NCBI RefSeq assembly: GCF_001406815.1
Contig: NZ_CVRR01000005.1
Coordinates: forward strand, 310,001 to 374,000
DNA from: Roseburia faecis
GTDB taxonomy: Bacteria > Bacillota > Clostridia > Lachnospirales > Lachnospiraceae
DNA: 64,000 bases
Reading direction: 5' to 3'
Under the pieces are notes generated by a model. It had not been told where the DNA came from and did no database searches. It was given only the letters and a program-made list of their open reading frames with translations. This document shows, one piece after another, positions 4,065 to 55,058 of the stretch (the first letter of the stretch is position 1; the number at the start of each line of letters is the position of its first letter). The translations under genes were made by a program, and so were the position numbers.

Positions 4065-4595
4065 CTAGCACTCCGGCTCGATCAGACCAAATGTATTTCC
4101 TTTTCTCTTGTATACGACATTGACCTCGTCTGTCTCTGCATTGCGGAATACGAAGAAATCGTGTCCGGTCAGTTCCATCTGCACACATGCATCCTCCGGA
4201 TACATTGGCTTCATACCAAATCTCTTGGTACGCACGATCTTGATCTCCTCATCCTCATCTGCATCGCTGTCGATAAATGCTTCGTTGAAATTGTCTGCCA
4301 CATTCATCTTCTTGGATGCAAGCTTGGTGCGGTACTTTCTAAGCTGACGCTCAATAACCTCCTCTACAAGATCAATAGAAACATACATATCATTGCTGCT
4401 CTGCTCTGAACGAATCACATGCCCCTTAATAGGAATCGTTACCTCAATCTTCTGGCGCTCCTTCTCCACGCTTAATGTAACAAATACATCGGTATCCGGT
4501 GCAAAAAACTTCTCCAGTTTGGAAAGCTTCTCCTCTACCGCTGCCTTCAGTCCCTCTGTCAGTTCGATATTTCTTCCGGTAATTGTAATTCTCAT
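4065..4595 (-). CDS. hpf: Ribosome hibernation-promoting factor, long form
   Basis: A 176-residue long-form HPF that dimerises 70S ribosomes into inactive 100S particles in stationary phase. The N-terminal RaiA/YfiA domain begins MRITITGRNIELTEGLK and continues KLEKFF; the C-terminal dimerisation domain carries KPMYPEDACVQMELTGHDFF and VVYKRKGNTFGLIEP. The ATG at 4595 is chosen over a TTG three codons upstream because AAAGGGG lies at the right distance for the ATG. It is monocistronic, with its own promoter and terminator. Confidence 0.95.
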   Translation of the reverse strand: MRITITGRNIELTEGLKAAVEEKLSKLEKFFAPDTDVFVTLSVEKERQKIEVTIPIKGHVIRSEQSSNDMYVSIDLVEEVIERQLRKYRTKLASKKMNVADNFNEAFIDSDADEDEEIKIVRTKRFGMKPMYPEDACVQMELTGHDFFVFRNAETDEVNVVYKRKGNTFGLIEPEC

Positions 4596-4645
4596 GATGC
4601 CCAACCCCTTTGCTGTGTATTTGATACAAGAAGTATCATGGTTTC

Positions 4646-4673
4646 ATTATATCATAAGTACCAAAAAAAGCAA
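4646..4673 (-). promoter_or_regulatory. Promoter of hpf
   Basis: TTGCTT and a perfect TATAAT (extended by TGA) are separated by 16 bases on the minus strand, about 50 bases ahead of hpf. The leader holds a small GATAC/GTATC inverted repeat. Confidence 0.6.
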
Positions 4674-4708
4674 CGAGTTTTATAAAATTTTATGCATATT
4701 TTATATTT

Positions 4709-5668
4709 TTATTGCAAATATCCATCCTTAACGATATCTGAAAGCTTCTCTGTCGGAACCGAAAATTCTACCAGACCCATATATCCAGGAGCCACCTCAT
4801 ACTTATCAAAGACAAACGTTAACTCTCCATTGTCGCTGATATAAAAATCCGCATCATCCTTAATCTGCTTAAAATCCCATTCCGATTGATCATCATCCAG
4901 AAAATATGCCTTACTGCTGTCCTTTTTCATCTGGGCACGCATCTGTTCTTTTATACTGTCAGAAATACGCTTTTTATAATCACTTCCCTCGTGGAATAAA
5001 TCTTTCAGTGTAATCATCTTTCCGGTCTTCTTGTCAATATTGTATATCTTTGTAAAACTGTCCGAACCGCCCATGGCAATAACCGTATCCACGCGAAGAC
5101 TAAACAGCCGCTCATTGTTTGTGACAATCCGGTAATCCGAAGTGATTTCCTCATGTCCTTCCTCTCCGTCACTGACAGCTGCCACATCTTTCTTGTACCT
5201 CTGAATGATTTTGTCCAAATATCCGGATACCGCTGCATTTAACTCCTTTGATTCTCTTGTCAGTGGTTTTCCATCTGTTCCGATGACTTTTACTTCCGGC
5301 ACCCTGACCGTTGCTTCCATCTGCTTTTTTTCCTGCTTATCCGAATACGTGGTAAAATTCACGATTTTAACAATCGCACCAAGTACCGGCACCTGTTCCA
5401 TTGCATTAGCCACTGTTGGACTGACATTGACACTGATGACCAGCACTGCAACTGCTGCCGCCACTGCTTCTGCCACGCGGACAAACGGAAGCAGGTGACC
5501 TTTCTTTTGATTCCGTTCACTTTTTCCGGCAAACGCTTTGCCGGATTCTTTTTTTTCTCCACACGCATCCTTTTTGCCGCGTTCCATACTTTGCAGCACA
5601 CGTTCTTTTAATTCCGCCGGCACCTGAATGTTATCATATGCCTCTTTGATATCATCTAATCTGCTCAT
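4709..5668 (-). CDS. rsiV: RsiV-like anti-sigma factor
   Basis: A 319-residue single-pass membrane protein predicted to hold the neighbouring ECF sigma factor inactive. Residues 1-60 are cytoplasmic (IQVPAELKERVLQSME, then Lys/Glu rich), a membrane segment covers about 65-85 (VAEAVAAAVAVLVISVNVS), and the outer part carries a DUF4163/DUF3298-like region ending SVPTEKLSDIVKDG. This order is that of Bacillus RsiV, which is also a lysozyme receptor. Its start overlaps the sigma gene stop by 4 bases. No oatA-like O-acetyltransferase is visible next to it, so the stress sensed here is not certain. Confidence 0.85.
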   Translation of the reverse strand: MSRLDDIKEAYDNIQVPAELKERVLQSMERGKKDACGEKKESGKAFAGKSERNQKKGHLLPFVRVAEAVAAAVAVLVISVNVSPTVANAMEQVPVLGAIVKIVNFTTYSDKQEKKQMEATVRVPEVKVIGTDGKPLTRESKELNAAVSGYLDKIIQRYKKDVAAVSDGEEGHEEITSDYRIVTNNERLFSLRVDTVIAMGGSDSFTKIYNIDKKTGKMITLKDLFHEGSDYKKRISDSIKEQMRAQMKKDSSKAYFLDDDQSEWDFKQIKDDADFYISDNGELTFVFDKYEVAPGYMGLVEFSVPTEKLSDIVKDGYLQ

Positions 5669-6283: not shown

Positions 6284-7096
6284 ATGGAAGGGGTGTTTTT
6301 TATATCATTTTATGAAACTATGCTTTTGCAACAGAAACAGCTGCAGCAAAAGCTGACAGACATTCAAAAACAGTTACAACAGCTTCCCGAAGGGAAACTG
6401 ATCTGCACCAGATGTGGTAATCGAACCAAATGGTATCGCAGTGATGGGCATACCAAAACCTATATTCCCAAAGACCAGAAACCTTATGCCTCTCAGCTTG
6501 CTATCCGACGTTATCTTCTGGAAAAGCAAAAGGAATATCAAACTAATTTAGATGCTTTAGCTTATTATTTCCGTCATGACAGTTATAACAGTGGCAAAGC
6601 AGAACAATTACTCACTTATGATAGTGCTTATCATTCACTGCTGGCAGAACATTTTCAGCCAGTATCCCAGGAACTTCAAACCTGGGAATCATCTCCATAT
6701 AACAAAAACAAAAATTATCCGGAACAATTAAAACATAAAACATGCAAAAATGAATTTATGCGTTCCAAATCAGAAGCTATGATTGCCATGAGCCTTTATG
6801 TTCAAAAAATTCCTTATCGCTATGAGTGTGAATTAAAACTCGGCAGCATTACACTTTTCCCCGATTTTACGATTCGTCACCCTGAAACCGGAGAAATATT
6901 TTATTGGGAACACTTTGGAATGATGGATAAATCCGAGTATGTGAAAAATGCATCAGATAAAATTTCTTTGTATATGAAATATGGGATTTATCCAAATGAT
7001 AAACTGCTTGTGTCCTATGAAACGCAAAAGCAGCCACTTTCCACTGAGCAGATCCAGCGACTATTACAATTTCATTTCGACTGCCAGTTTCAATAA
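6284..7096 (+). CDS. Putative PD-(D/E)XK-fold protein
   Basis: A 270-residue cytosolic protein. The N-terminal part is Gln-rich coiled coil (about 12-36) followed by a single CTRCGN pair. The C-terminal third resembles a nuclease-fold core: SKSEAMIAMSLYVQKIPY (helix with Glu), a strand YECELKL, then LFPDFTI and FYWEHFGMM, giving E...PD...WEH spacing seen in PD-(D/E)XK-like proteins. The classical Lys is replaced by His. A GGAAGGGG ribosome site lies just inside the first codons, so the true start may be downstream of 6284. It stands alone on the plus strand, downstream of the divergent sigV promoter, and ends before a repeat element. Confidence 0.75.
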   Translation: MEGVFFISFYETMLLQQKQLQQKLTDIQKQLQQLPEGKLICTRCGNRTKWYRSDGHTKTYIPKDQKPYASQLAIRRYLLEKQKEYQTNLDALAYYFRHDSYNSGKAEQLLTYDSAYHSLLAEHFQPVSQELQTWESSPYNKNKNYPEQLKHKTCKNEFMRSKSEAMIAMSLYVQKIPYRYECELKLGSITLFPDFTIRHPETGEIFYWEHFGMMDKSEYVKNASDKISLYMKYGIYPNDKLLVSYETQKQPLSTEQIQRLLQFHFDCQFQ

Positions 7097-7202
7097 CAAA
7101 TTATTTCTAAAGGTACTGTCGCATTGGGGCATATCAATAGCAACTGAAAATCGGTAATTCATTTCTATCTTTTGCAACATTATCTATATTTGAAGGCACG
7201 CT

Positions 7203-7608
7203 GGTATCTATAGTATTAAAATTACTTGCTCAGGTGACATTTTTGCCTTATTTCACGCTTCAAATCAGATATTTGTCACCTATAGTCTAAAATCACATCA
7301 AAAGATACCGCTTTTTGTCCAAAAGCGGTATCTTTTGATGAATTTTTCTAATATAGAGACTAAACGGTATCCTGCTCATCAATTTTTTTACTATAGAGAC
7401 CACCGTGGTATCTTTTTTCATGTTTTTACTTCTATAGAGACCGCCGTGGTATCTTTTTCATGTTTTTGCTTCTATAGAGACTACCGTGGTATCCTTTTCA
7501 TGTTTTTACTTCTATAGAAACCACCATGGTATCCTTTTCCATGTTTTTGCTTCTATAAGAGACCACGCAATATCTTACATCATATTTCTGCCTATAGAAA
7601 CCATGTCT
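7203..7608. repeat. Composite repeat element, copy A
   Basis: From left to right: GGTATCTATAG; an 8-bp inverted repeat AGGTGACA (7232) / TGTCACCT (7274); a perfect 20-bp inverted repeat at 7296-7315 and 7321-7340 with a five-base loop; then seven units of about 40 bp beginning at 7351, 7391, 7432, 7472, 7512, 7553 and 7592. Each unit reads roughly CTATAGAGACCACCGTGG then TATC, a T run, CATG and TTTTT. The centre ACCACGGTGGT is palindromic. On the minus strand the array starts at the stop codon of the ABC-F gene. A second copy with the same order of parts lies at 14878-15143. Bases 7097-7202 hold nothing recognisable. Confidence 0.85.
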
Positions 7609-9579
7609 CTAGCCTTCCAGCTCCTCAAGCTGCTGGGAAAGTTCCTCCCAGTTTTCCATATCTGCCATGATTTCTTCCTCCAACGCATCGATTTCGCCCT
7701 GAATCTCTGTCAGCTTGGAATAGCTGGACTGATATTCCGGCCGCAGCAGTTCCTGTTTTAAAGCGTCCAGCTTCTCCTCTTTGACTGCCAGTTCTTCCTC
7801 GGCCTTCTTCACTTTTTTTTCAATTTTCGAGCGCTCCTTGCCCGGATTGTAATACGCTTTCTTACCACCGGTTTCCTGTGTGCCTTTGCTCTGCTGAATG
7901 CCACCGTTCTGGCTGATTGCACCGCCTAACGCTGCAGGATTTTTACGATAATCATCCCCGGATTCTGCCGCTTCACGATCCAGTTTTTCCTGATATTCCT
8001 CGTAACCAAACTGATACAGATGTGTCGTGCCGTCCTCAAAAACAAGCAGACGGTTTGCTACCTTGCGCACAAAATACCGGTCATGCGATACGAAGATCAG
8101 CGTGCCGGAGAAATCTTTTAACATACTCTCAAGCGTTTCTTTTCCCACAATATCCATATGGTTGGTTGGCTCATCCAGCACCAGCACATTCGGTCGACGC
8201 TTTAAGATCTTACACAGTGCCAGACGCACCTTCTCCCCACCGGAAAGCATATCAATATTTTTAAATACATCCTCCCCGGTAAACATAAAGGCGCCGAGCG
8301 CATTCCGCGCTTCTGTCTCGGTCAGATTCGGGAACTCATCCCAGAAATCATCCAGCACCGTCTTCCGGCTCGAATACATCGCCATCTGCTGGTCAAAATA
8401 ACCAATCTGCACATTTGTTCCAAAATTGTACTCTCCGGACAGCGGGGCAAGCTGTCCCACCAGGGTTTTTAAAAGTGTCGATTTCCCCAGACCATTTCCA
8501 CCGAGGATTCCCAGCTTTTCCCCTTTTTTCAGATCAAAACTGACCGTAGAAAGCGGATGGTCATATCCAATCGCAAGGTTTGTCACCAAAAGCACATCGT
8601 TTCCGGTTTCTTTGTCCGGCTGGAAATTTGCATGGAATGTCCGGGTATCAAAACGATCCGGAGCTTCGAGTTTTACCATATGTTCAATGGCTTTCTCCTT
8701 GGAATGCGCCATGGACACCTTGGTTGGTTTATTTTTAAACCGGTCAACAATGCGCTGCAATCGTGCAATTTCTTTCTGCTGCGCATTGTAATCTTTCATC
8801 ATCTTATTGTAGTTTTCTTTTTTCCGCTCCATGAAATTGGAGTAATTGCCCGGATAACGGGTCGCTGTGCCGTACTCAATCTCGTACACCACGTCCACCA
8901 CATTGTCCAGAAACATACGGTCATGTGATACCACGACCACAGCCTTCGGATAATTTTTCAGATACGTCTCCAGCCACTCGATCGTTGTGATATCCAGATG
9001 GTTCGTCGGCTCATCCAGAAGCAGAATATCCGGCTTGCTCAACAGCAGCTTGATGAAGGCAATCTTTGTCTGCTGTCCACCGGAAAACTCGGACAGCGGT
9101 TTCTTTCGCTCTTCCTCGGAAAAGCCGAACTTACGGATGATTACATCATACTCTTTTTCAAAATAGTATCCGCCGTCTTCCTTGAATTTTTCTTCCATTG
9201 CGGTATAACGTGTCACGGCCTCTTCGGAATAATCAGTCTCAAGTGCCTGTGCCGCAGCTTCCAGTTCTTTTTTCCGGCGCTCCATCGGAGCAAAGACTTT
9301 ACGCACTTCCTGCTCAAGCGTAACGGAAGGATCTTCAAACGCAATCTGTTTTAAGTAACCGATCTGCGGATTGCCTGCTTTTGCAATAAAAATATCCTCA
9401 TCACTGTCTCTTTTGTCCAGCTCCACATCCCCGTGGATCAGCTTTAAGAGCGTGGTTTTGCCGCAGCCGTTCCGCCCGACGACTGCAATTTTTTCCGTAT
9501 TTCTTATTTCAAAATTGATGTCATGCAGAATCTCTTCATCGGCAAAAGAGACTGCTCCATGGCAGATCTGATATAACAT
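7609..9579 (-). CDS. ABC-F family ATPase
   Basis: A 656-residue soluble protein with two ABC nucleotide-binding domains and no membrane segments, the ABC-F plan of ribosome-acting factors. Walker A motifs are GRNGCGKTT (about 36) and GGNGLGKST (about 359); signature motifs are LSEFSGGQQTKIAF and MLSGGEKVRLAL; Walker B is DILLLDEPTNHLD and VLVLDEPTNHMD. The linker between domains is Lys/Arg rich. A C-terminal coiled coil (about 575-650) is typical of the Uup/YdiF branch. Whether it gives antibiotic resistance or acts in translation quality control cannot be told. It starts 11 bases after the DUF815 gene stops. Confidence 0.93.
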   Translation of the reverse strand: MLYQICHGAVSFADEEILHDINFEIRNTEKIAVVGRNGCGKTTLLKLIHGDVELDKRDSDEDIFIAKAGNPQIGYLKQIAFEDPSVTLEQEVRKVFAPMERRKKELEAAAQALETDYSEEAVTRYTAMEEKFKEDGGYYFEKEYDVIIRKFGFSEEERKKPLSEFSGGQQTKIAFIKLLLSKPDILLLDEPTNHLDITTIEWLETYLKNYPKAVVVVSHDRMFLDNVVDVVYEIEYGTATRYPGNYSNFMERKKENYNKMMKDYNAQQKEIARLQRIVDRFKNKPTKVSMAHSKEKAIEHMVKLEAPDRFDTRTFHANFQPDKETGNDVLLVTNLAIGYDHPLSTVSFDLKKGEKLGILGGNGLGKSTLLKTLVGQLAPLSGEYNFGTNVQIGYFDQQMAMYSSRKTVLDDFWDEFPNLTETEARNALGAFMFTGEDVFKNIDMLSGGEKVRLALCKILKRRPNVLVLDEPTNHMDIVGKETLESMLKDFSGTLIFVSHDRYFVRKVANRLLVFEDGTTHLYQFGYEEYQEKLDREAAESGDDYRKNPAALGGAISQNGGIQQSKGTQETGGKKAYYNPGKERSKIEKKVKKAEEELAVKEEKLDALKQELLRPEYQSSYSKLTEIQGEIDALEEEIMADMENWEELSQQLEELEG

Positions 9580-14734: not shown

Positions 14735-14877
14735 GTTTCTTGATACGCCAAATTTGCAGGTTGATGTTTTAAATATAAGATTTCTCTAAGTGACGTAAGA
14801 AGGGGGGACATTTCTTCCTGTTGGTTGGAGAAAATATAATTGAAAGACATCCCGATAAATTAATTGATGATAAGGCC

Positions 14878-15143
14878 CGGTATCTATAGATGAAAAATTA
14901 AAGCCTAAGGTGACGTTTTCCCGAAATTTTAATGCTAGAAATCTGGACATGTCACCTATATGGTAAAAATTGCTTCTCCGGATACCGCTTTTTTCATAAA
15001 AGTGGTACCTGAAGAAGCAATTTTTGATCTATAGAGACTTTCCGGTATCTAAATATTAAATTTTCGGTATATAGGTACCACAACGGTATCTTTTACATGA
15101 ATTTTATCGGCATAGAAACCACGACGATATCTTTCCGATGAAT
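14878..15143. repeat. Composite repeat element, copy B
   Basis: Same order of parts as the element at 7203-7608: CCGGTATCTATAG; AGGTGAC/GTCACCT inverted repeat (14908-14957); a near-perfect 28-bp hairpin at 14965-15025 whose inner arm GATACCGCTTTT is shared with copy A but whose outer arm is different; then three 40-bp units starting at 15029, 15069 and 15110. On the minus strand the array begins directly at the stop codon of the DUF1275 gene. Bases 14735-14877 hold nothing recognisable. Confidence 0.8.
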
Positions 15144-26713: not shown

Positions 26714-26759
26714 GGGGTGTCTGTTATAGAAAGGAGAAACAGATTTCGAAAAGTTAAAA

Positions 26760-26919
26760 ACTTTAGCGCCATGTACCCTGTGATACAGCTTTCGCTGTAC
26801 CACAAGGGTTAACGAGGATTCAGGTGATCGAAGATTCGGCGGATGCCTGAACGCAGAAAGGGGCTGCGCATACGAATCACAAACAGGATGGTAACATCCG
26901 AACAAAGGATTCGTACCCC
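26760..26919 (+). ncRNA. glmS ribozyme
   Basis: The conserved glmS core is present in order: AGCGCC (self-cleavage expected before G 26766), GGTTAACGAGG near 26807, GGTGATCGAAGATTCGG then CGGATGCCT, and the AACAGGATGG / CATCC..GATTCGTACCCC part. It lies upstream of glmS and cleaves the mRNA when glucosamine-6-phosphate is plentiful. Two further stems follow before the gene: GCCAATTGC/GCAATTGGC and GGTGATAACAC/GTGTTACC. Confidence 0.93.
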
Positions 26920-27074
26920 GATGGAGCCAATTGCATGAGAATTTGCTTACGCGAAGCAATTGGCATAGGTGATAACACTTACGTGTTACCACATAATGTA
27001 CAATGAAAAATATTCTGACGAACGAAAACAATATCGGAATCATAAAATTATATGAGAAAAAGGAGATTTCAATT

Positions 27075-54710: not shown

Positions 54711-55058
54711 CAAAAAACCGTCTCAGGAAATAAATCCTGAGACGGTAATAAAGCCTTTGCTTTCTTATCGCGGTACCACTCAAATTGACAGTCATCTGTC
54801 CGCTCTGTCACATACCTTCATATGCGCCGAATTGGTAACGGGTTCGGTTCCCGGCGACACCTACTCAATAAACCATATCAAAAATATGTTTCCTGCATTA
54901 ATCGCCTCCGCATAACGGAATCCATGCGATCTGCTCCTTTTCAGGTCGCCCTCAAAAGTCCATTCAACAAATCCTTCCATACTGCATCGCACCACCTGCA
55001 GCTCTCTGGGATATCCAGATAAGTCTACTCCTCTTTCTCATCGGTTTGTTCTCTTATT
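54711..55058 (-). promoter_or_regulatory. T-box riboswitch, tryptophan-specific
   Basis: On the minus strand: stem I with AGAGAGC and GGTGGTGCGATGCAG, a specifier loop GAATGGAC in which TGG (54962-54960) is the likely Trp specifier, a CCGGGAACCGAACCCGTTA stem, the T-box AATTTGAGTGGTACCGCG (near 54771-54787), and a strong terminator ACCGTCTCAGGA/TCCTGAGACGGT with TTTTTT (54711-54747). It terminates transcription when tRNA-Trp is charged. Confidence 0.9.

What the first reader, a model, noticed from the sequence alone, without database searches (positions are those of the whole stretch)
7203..7608. Composite 3'-UTR repeat element: 40-bp palindromic array plus long hairpins
Seven units of about 40 bp start at the stop codon of the ABC-F gene, followed (on the minus strand) by a perfect 20-bp hairpin with core GATACCGCTTTT and then by an AGGTGAC/GTCACCT hairpin. 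Each unit has an ACCACGGTGGT palindrome and a CTATAGA box. I do not recognise it as REP, ERIC, BOX or CRISPR. It may be a non-autonomous mobile element, a protein-binding array or a structured 3' UTR.
Basis: seen in the sequence. Interest (0 to 1): 0.82.

Follow-up and report, generated by a model that had tools for sequence, protein, structure and literature searches.

The report
Nuclease-linked inverted-repeat arrays in Clostridia
The odd repeat cluster sits beside an undescribed nuclease-like gene, and relatives of that gene in many gut bacteria often sit beside their own, differently spelled repeat cluster, which suggests an unrecognised nuclease-plus-target-site element that spreads within genomes.

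Summary
The true unit is a ~36-bp inverted repeat: a 6-8-bp arm (here GGTATC/GATACC), a 23-25-bp AT-rich spacer, and the arm again inverted. The array starts 106 bp after ORF 6284-7096, a 270-aa protein with no Pfam or NCBIfam match. Its C-terminus is PD-(D/E)XK-nuclease-like (PADLOC PDC-S68 domain, 6e-30; AlphaFold2 pLDDT 91). Relatives occur in 134 of 397 genomes of the family and 54 of 391 of the class. At least two fixed-spacing units with one shared arm flank 45 of 80 relatives in public genomes, against 1 of 60 far-flank controls. Arms differ between loci (GGGACAT, TGGGTAT, CGGGGTA, GTATTC) and track protein relatedness (Mantel r 0.47, 0 of 2000 permutations). Arrays with the window's arms lie at several other sites of its genome, away from its nuclease genes. 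Best reading: site array of a dedicated nuclease, spreading as a selfish or mobile module with solo derivatives. Association and geometry are shown; binding, cutting and mode of spread are inferred. It works like REPIN/RAYT but is not a member.

The parts
6284..7096 (+). 270-aa PD-(D/E)XK-like nuclease gene, partner of the array
   Evidence: PADLOC PDC-S68 C-terminal domain E 6e-30; AF2 pLDDT 91.1; E164, D194, E209, H210 invariant in 64 sequences; homologues flanked by arrays
7203..7213 (-). Left outer arm GGTATC + TATAG (reverse-oriented end); the block homologous to the dispersed copies starts at this arm (7201-7203)
7232..7281 (.). AGGTGAC...GTCACCT inverted repeat (arm variant, longer spacer)
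   Evidence: also in the C6, C37a and C5b copies
7296..7340 (.). 20-bp perfect hairpin, core GATACCGCTTTT/AAAAGCGGTATC; the core CCGCTTTT..AAAAGCGG recurs in the GGGACAT array of congener G018
7327..7361 (.). Inverted-repeat unit A (GGTATC-23-GAGACT)
   Evidence: read; not listed by the unit search
7366..7401 (.). Unit B (GGTATC-24-GAGACC)
7407..7442 (.). Unit C (GGTATC-24-GAGACC)
7448..7482 (.). Unit D (GGTATC-23-GAGACT)
   Evidence: read; not listed by the unit search
7488..7522 (.). Unit E (GGTATC-23-GAAACC)
7528..7564 (.). Unit F (GGTATC-25-GAGACC)
7569..7602 (.). Unit G, degenerate (AATATC-22-GAAACC), ending just before the ABC-F stop codon
   Evidence: read; not listed by the unit search
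14843..15134 (+). Second copy of the element in the window, with units GGTATC-24-GGTACC (15044-15079) and GGTATC-24-GAAACC (15085-15120); the nearest nuclease homologue is the one at 6284-7096

Best explanation
The array is the cognate site array of the adjacent nuclease, and gene plus array form one selfish or mobile module. SHOWN: (1) the units are fixed-geometry inverted repeats (6-8-bp arms, spacers of 19-27 bp where searched at 18-27); (2) the neighbouring gene belongs to a large undescribed PD-(D/E)XK-like family of Clostridia; (3) many members carry such units within 600 bp, each locus with its own arms, and arms track protein relatedness; (4) the window's arms also occur in arrays elsewhere in its genome, away from the three nuclease homologues found there; (5) at least two members (G018, L144) stand between direct repeats made of the array. 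INFERRED: a nuclease dimer binds one inverted repeat, one protomer per arm. It cuts or nicks in the AT-rich spacer. Break repair using another array then expands, moves or converts arrays and carries the gene along, and recombination between flanking arrays leaves solo copies.
For:: at least 2 units with the same exact 6-mer arm within 600 bp of the gene in 45 of 80 nuclease loci; 1 of 60 far flanks of the same loci (that one, L181, has TGGGTA, the arm of its own near array); 4 of 27 usable ABC-F loci (30 fetched), two of which (G018, G056) are arrays next to a nuclease gene and two of which look like chance; 15 of 19 loci of a class-wide set (6 of 9 from the own family, 9 of 10 from families f5, f18, f34, f45); count of a 7-mer plus its complement at least 6 in 35 of 80 loci, 2 of 60 far flanks, 0 of 800 shuffles; exact 7-bp inverted repeats with 14-25-nt spacers (range chosen on seeing the histogram), 226 near (90,569 bases) against 46 far (84,071 bases). 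Mantel r 0.47 over 45 loci, 0 of 2000 permutations; arms identical while spacers within an array are 51% alike on average (33% in L151 with 8 units; 28% between arrays). GGTATC-24-GATACC-type arrays at other sites; homology of the C59 copy to C6, C37b and C5b starts and ends at arms; flank-to-flank repeats of 40 bp or more in 11 of 72 loci (8 direct, 3 inverted; 278 bp at 92% in G018) against 0 of 60 controls; 5 of the 8 direct cases are at loci with detected units; invariant catalytic-type residues; several of the best fold matches are restriction-endonuclease-like.
Against: 35 of 80 loci show fewer than 2 exact-arm units. The window locus itself scores only 1 in the exact-arm test because its right arms (GAGACC) differ by one base from the complement of GGTATC, and own C33 also scores 1. 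Arm-protein tracking is expected from linkage alone and is no stronger for the N-terminal part (0.449) than for the C-terminal part (0.437). No Foldseek match reaches E 0.001, and prefoldins rank among the first. The N-terminal domain resembles prefoldin weakly and no known DNA-binding domain. No target-site duplication was recognised at the one site compared. 4 of 19 class-set loci lack arrays, and that set has no far-flank control. 3 of the 8 direct-repeat loci (L167, L194, L196) have no detected units. Nothing was tested for binding or cutting.
Confidence: 0.62

Rival explanations
1. Autoregulatory operator array: the protein binds the inverted repeats to control its own gene or neighbours, and cutting plays no part.
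For: Dimer-like symmetric sites next to the gene; 22 of 45 loci have units upstream.
Against: 23 of 45 loci have units only downstream. Catalytic-type residues E164, D194, E209 and H210 are invariant in 64 sequences. Arrays also lie far from the gene. Flanking direct repeats up to 278 bp.
Confidence: 0.15
2. RNA-guided or RNA-processing system: the array is transcribed, arms form RNA stems and spacers act as loops or guides, as in TIGR-Tas or CRISPR.
For: Locus-specific repeats beside a nuclease-like gene, units about 36 nt, spacers diverse in some arrays.
Against: One-mismatch arms (arrays of 3 or more units) show no strand bias: 17 G.U on the gene strand, 12 on the other, p 0.46. The window arms keep a non-wobble mismatch (read). 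Spacers within arrays are often similar (mean 51%, up to 82%). No Nop-domain match (compare passages of PMC12045711). No Rfam hit in the arrays of 20 loci scanned.
Confidence: 0.12
3. The arrays are ordinary palindromic repeats (REP/BOX/MITE-like or terminators) moved by some unrelated transposase; their closeness to the nuclease is a shared liking for intergenic space.
For: Terminator-like hairpin readable from both sides; composite copies flanked by another palindrome family, P1.
Against: Enrichment beside the nuclease over far flanks (45 of 80 against 1 of 60; far flanks are partly coding, so this control is not purely intergenic) and the arm-protein tracking. The only Y1 transposase matches of the genome are interrupted or fragmentary; other transposase families were not searched.
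Confidence: 0.11

Closest known systems
REPIN / RAYT (REP-associated tyrosine transposase)
   Same: Short inverted repeats in doublets or arrays, dispersed in extragenic space, with family-specific repeats beside the gene of a dedicated enzyme (abstract of PMC3116915).
   Different: RAYTs are HUH (Y1) enzymes (recalled); here the protein is PD-(D/E)XK-like. Arms are private to each locus or lineage, with a near-constant spacer and tandem units.
TIGR-Tas
   Same: Array of short repeats conserved within a locus and different between loci, upstream and/or downstream of one gene; RNAs of 36 nt (passages of PMC12045711).
   Different: TIGR uses 8-12-nt edge and loop repeats with 9-nt spacers and a Nop-domain protein, sometimes with RuvC or HNH; here inverted arms, spacers over 19 nt, PD-(D/E)XK-like, no strand bias.
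BOX elements of Streptococcus pneumoniae (recalled, no call)
   Same: Modular core plus a variable number of tandem units, intergenic, dispersed.
   Different: No linked nuclease is recalled for BOX; sequence and unit differ.
PDC-S68 / PDC-S69 / HEAT_CxxC_PDDEXK (PADLOC candidates)
   Same: C-terminal nuclease domain is related (6e-30, 1.5e-4 and 0.0019).
   Different: PDC-S68 models are 1202-1273 positions long; here the domain follows a ~100-residue helix-sheet-helix domain. Whether PDC-S68 genes have arrays was not examined.

Membership tests
REPIN/RAYT | Partner is a Y1 (HUH) transposase (PF01797) | tested here: not met
   Window protein has no PF01797 match; the Y1 matches of the genome are on one contig, interrupted or fragmentary
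REPIN/RAYT | Inverted repeat doublets dispersed in extragenic space | tested here: met
   Copies at other sites of the genome; that every copy is extragenic was read for the window copies only
REPIN/RAYT | Repeat family linked to its own enzyme gene | tested here: met
TIGR-Tas | Nop-domain protein | tested here: not met
   No Pfam family above cut-off in the window protein or one homologue
TIGR-Tas | Two alternating 8-12-nt repeats with 9-12-nt spacers | tested here: not met
   Window array read directly: inverted 6-nt arms, 23-25-nt similar spacers. Related arrays: my unit finder only looked at 18-27 nt; the wider inverted-repeat histogram (3-60 nt) has its peak at 14-25
TIGR-Tas / CRISPR | Array transcribed and processed into guide RNAs | not testable with these tools
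   Only indirect: no strand bias of arm mismatches
PD-(D/E)XK superfamily | Restriction-endonuclease fold with acidic active-site motif | tested here: inconclusive
   High-ranking fold matches are of this kind (8gh6 prob 0.96, 7lo5 0.94, 3ijm 0.91; superfamily of 8gh6 and 7lo5 recalled) but none at E <= 0.001; E164, P193-D194 and E209-H210 invariant; PADLOC PDDEXK-type models match
Known Rfam RNA family | Covariance-model match above gathering score | tested here: not met
   None at the array in the window (below gathering only weak hits) nor at arrays of 20 related loci, where the two matches are a glmS and a TwoAYGGAY element
DNA transposon / MITE | Target-site duplication at the ends | tested here: inconclusive
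   Only one site compared with empty congener sites, by eye; no clear duplication

The most novel reading that the evidence does not exclude
A new kind of selfish genetic module of the Clostridia: a small dedicated PD-(D/E)XK nuclease together with arrays of its private target, a 6-8-bp arm inverted around a ~20-27-bp spacer. Arm specificity diversifies quickly with the protein, several mutually different modules coexist in one genome, and nuclease cutting of arrays drives their copying, so that nuclease-free solo arrays scatter through the chromosome.
Probability: 0.55. Interest if true: 0.88.

Novelty: categorically new. Interest (0 to 1): 0.82.

Why it matters
The protein family has no name in the Pfam, NCBIfam or PDB searches made here, yet relatives occur in about a third of the genomes sampled from the family (134 of 397) and in other families of the class. 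If the arms are what the nuclease reads, nature offers probably hundreds of protein-site pairs that differ in arm sequence: a ready data set for learning how a small nuclease changes its DNA specificity. It would also be a nuclease-driven counterpart of REP/RAYT elements built on an unrelated enzyme, and could explain part of the palindromic repeats of gut Clostridia genomes.

Tried and rejected
Known RNA family: no Rfam match in the array at gathering score; weak hits below gathering, IS605-orfB-I among them, taken as noise. Phage origin: one 'phage' record, MT837195.1, matched, but it is an unverified, unannotated faecal scaffold of chromosomal DNA sharing gene and flanks with contig C37 of this genome. 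A pattern-based scan of IMG/VR confirmed no relative of the nuclease, and the unit pattern had no match there. Plasmids: no match. Wider search for the DNA element itself: within the genus only matches of 25 bases or less outside the own genome (at most 13 and 11 candidates scored per genome); family, two matches of 26 and 32 bases outside it (2 candidates scored per genome); genome contigs pattern, 0 (the own genome may be left out there). The element was not traceable by its letters; the protein was the way out. RAYT/Y1 partner: rejected. A genome-wide pattern for GATACCNC hairpins found only the known one and one other place. N-terminal domain as a known DNA-binding fold: not found. N-terminal against C-terminal arm tracking: no difference. 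pdb_via library: not available. A tree groups the window protein with that of G018 (100/99) but was not used to count arm changes. Not in print, as far as searched: (open-access PMC only; two searches asked only for TIGR and PDC-S68) returned nothing describing this pairing; for PMC12045711 I saw passages, for PMC3116915 the abstract and outline, for the others the search listings only.

Scope limits: the arm finder uses exact 6-mers and spacers of 18-27 nt, so degenerate arrays are missed. Far-flank controls existed for 60 of 80 loci and are partly coding DNA; ABC-F controls for 27 of 30. L148 and L150 are identical copies from one contig and both counted in the 80 (neither reached 2 units). 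For alignment A3, 13 of the 80 loci were left out for internal stops, odd length or no stop, and four more (L150, L179, L190, L205) by my choice; A4 used 28 loci plus the window. The tree left out rows with stops or under 220 residues. In the Mantel script X stood at each stop. The window and the 19 class-set loci were not part of the Mantel test.

Full report
OBSERVATION. The reported array is present. Its register needs correction. The ACCACGGTGGT palindrome is the junction between neighbours; what repeats is an inverted repeat of the arm GGTATC with a 23-25-nt spacer that carries the CTATAG box at its edge. The window array has seven such units (7327-7602; four pass the one-mismatch search, three more are read by eye), preceded on the plus strand by a reverse-oriented arm (7203), an AGGTGAC/GTCACCT repeat and a 20-bp perfect hairpin. 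In other copies of the same genome the units are regular: GGTATC (once GGTACC), exactly 24 nt, then GATACC, GGTACC or GAAACC, 36 bp in all, in the C6, C37a, C37b, C59, C70 and second window copies.

COPIES IN THE GENOME. DNA searches of the own genome (3.33 Mb, 100 contigs) find homologous copies on C6, twice on C37, on C59, a partial one on C70, a second one in the window at 14843-15134, and the long hairpin alone on C3. The C6 copy is 94% (C37b), 88% (C37a) and 87% (C5b) identical to copies elsewhere. The nuclease searches found three homologues in this genome, on C5 (window), C9 and C33 (six candidates scored), so the other copies have none beside them as far as searched. The block that C59 shares with C6, C37b and C5b starts and ends at arms (its match to C37a runs on into P1), and the window copy starts at its left arm. 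Several copies are nested with a second palindrome family, P1, with GGGGACAT-type ends; a P1 query has 10 matches in the genome, itself included. No other genome among 62 of the genus has more than a 25-base match.

THE PARTNER GENE. The ORF at 6284-7096 ends 106 bases before the array. It has no Pfam family above cut-off, no NCBIfam family, no solved-structure relative and no convincing PHROG. PADLOC models match its C-terminal part: PDC-S68 at 6e-30, PDC-S69, HEAT_CxxC_PDDEXK. AlphaFold2 on 64 sequences gives pLDDT 91, pTM 0.66: a helix, a three-stranded sheet and a long helix (about residues 9-102), then a nuclease-like domain. E164, P193-D194 and E209-H210 are invariant. High-ranking Foldseek matches of the whole model are restriction-endonuclease-like (R2 element protein 0.96, DrdV 0.94, 3ijm 0.91), prefoldins rank close behind, and none passes E 0.001. 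The N-terminal model alone resembles prefoldin weakly. The nuclease assignment is therefore probable and the DNA-reading part is unknown.

THE LINK. In congener G018 the homologue (56% identical) lies in the same intergenic region, between ABC-F and hpf, but in the other orientation and beside an array with other arms, GGGACAT. In G056 a homologue, cut by the end of the locus, also follows ABC-F and a GGGACAT array. G005 and G037 have ABC-F directly followed by hpf. That led to a test on relatives. Relatives occur in 134 of 397 family genomes and in 54 of 391 class genomes, in several families (at most six candidates were scored per genome; some matches are the nuclease domain in larger proteins or the N-terminal domain alone). 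Of 80 loci from public genomes, mostly titled Lachnospiraceae, 45 have at least two units with one exact 6-mer arm at 18-27-nt spacing within 600 bases of the gene; far flanks of the same loci give 1 of 60, and ABC-F genes 4 of 27, two of them nuclease-linked arrays. An independent statistic gives 35 of 80 against 2 of 60 far flanks and 0 of 800 shuffles, and a spacing histogram has its excess at 14-25 nt near the gene (226 against 46). A class-wide set gives 15 of 19: 6 of 9 in the own family and 9 of 10 outside it. Rows against: 35 of 80 and 4 of 19 have fewer than two exact units, and the window locus itself scores one by this strict test because its right arms are one base off.

ARMS. Arms differ from locus to locus: GGGACAT, TGGGTAT, TGGGCAT, TGGGCGT, CGGGGTA, GGGTCT, AGTATC, TATCGC, ACGGAC in a further family member, and outside the family GTATTC, AGGCCG, TTACGG, GGACAC, TTCTAC and others. 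Related proteins have related arms (Mantel r 0.47, 45 loci, 0 of 2000 permutations), as linkage alone would also give. Within arrays arms stay identical while spacers drift: mean spacer identity is 51% within arrays and 28% between, and 33% in L151 with eight units. Arms were chosen as exact matches, so only the contrast with the controls makes this telling. The three homologues of the own genome have three different arms: GGTATC, GGGACA and GTACTAC (the last three pairs at 34-35 nt, or one at 24 if read the other way round). Among units with one mismatch, 29 of 32 are of the G.U/A.C (transition) type, with no strand preference (17 against 12, p 0.46), which fits double-stranded DNA sites better than an RNA stem.

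MOBILITY. Eleven of 72 loci (69 public, 3 own) have repeats of 40 bp or more between their two flanks (8 direct, 3 inverted) against 0 of 60 controls; G018 has 278 bp at 92%. In G018 and L144 the direct repeat is the array itself; five of the eight direct cases are at loci with detected units, three are not. So some genes sit between directly repeated arrays, from which recombination could leave a solo array. Pairs of related genomes with the same flanks carry diverged or inverted nucleases: L133/L136 have flank DNA 93 and 94% identical, protein 72%, gene inverted; L171/L173 flanks 94 and 85%, protein 53%; L192/L204 flanks 88 and 80%, protein 59%. L163/L169 (protein 85%) and L142/L149/L153 (80-90%) show the slower end. 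The locus can turn over faster than its surroundings. No target-site duplication was recognised.

INTERPRETATION. The best-supported reading is a nuclease with its own site array, spreading as a selfish module with solo derivatives. Shown: geometry, linkage, locus-specific arms, dispersal of the window's arms, flanking direct repeats in some cases. Inferred: dimer binding, cutting in the spacer, spread by break repair. It works like REPIN/RAYT but fails the defining feature, a Y1 enzyme. It shares the look of TIGR arrays but not the Nop protein or, in the window array, the 9-nt spacers. The label 'categorically new' rests on no match in the protein and RNA libraries and on eight paper searches of open-access text; subscription papers and most preprints were not searchable.

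Noticed in passing
MT837195.1 (L055), 6500-7482: A record filed as 'Bacteriophage sp.' looks like chromosomal DNA of this species or a very close one. By eye it joins the left flank of copy C37b to the right flank of C37a, so either the 34-kb segment between these two inverted copies flips, or the scaffold is chimeric.
   Followed up: partly
G000:C37:152019-152209 and 9 further matches (L211-L220); window about 14812-14850: P1, a palindrome of roughly 170 bp with GGGGACAT-type ends beside several array copies; its ends resemble the arms (GGGACA) of the array at the C9 nuclease, suggesting it is a solo derivative of that second module.
   Followed up: partly
G000:C9:36753-37547 (L124): The C9 homologue has GGGACA-type arms on both sides and, downstream, five tandem ~50-bp direct repeats that each start with (G)GGACATATG.
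   Followed up: partly
Class-level genomes such as G559:C79, G494:C92, G698:C302: ORFs of about 100-130 aa match only the N-terminal domain of the nuclease; they might be stand-alone binders or remnants.
   Followed up: no
G000:C70:134704-135071: An IS200/IS605 element whose tnpA reading frame is interrupted, beside a long tnpB-like frame; the Y1 transposase matches of this genome are here and in a fragment 3 kb away.
   Followed up: no
window 7201-7611 and hpf upstream about 4560-4720: The interval between ABC-F and hpf is a hot spot: the window genome and two congeners carry a nuclease module there (two orientations, two arm types), at least two other congeners are empty, and in the window the array abuts the ABC-F stop codon.
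   Followed up: partly
window 26754-26923, 54735-55050: glmS ribozyme and a T-box leader, ordinary Rfam matches.
   Followed up: no
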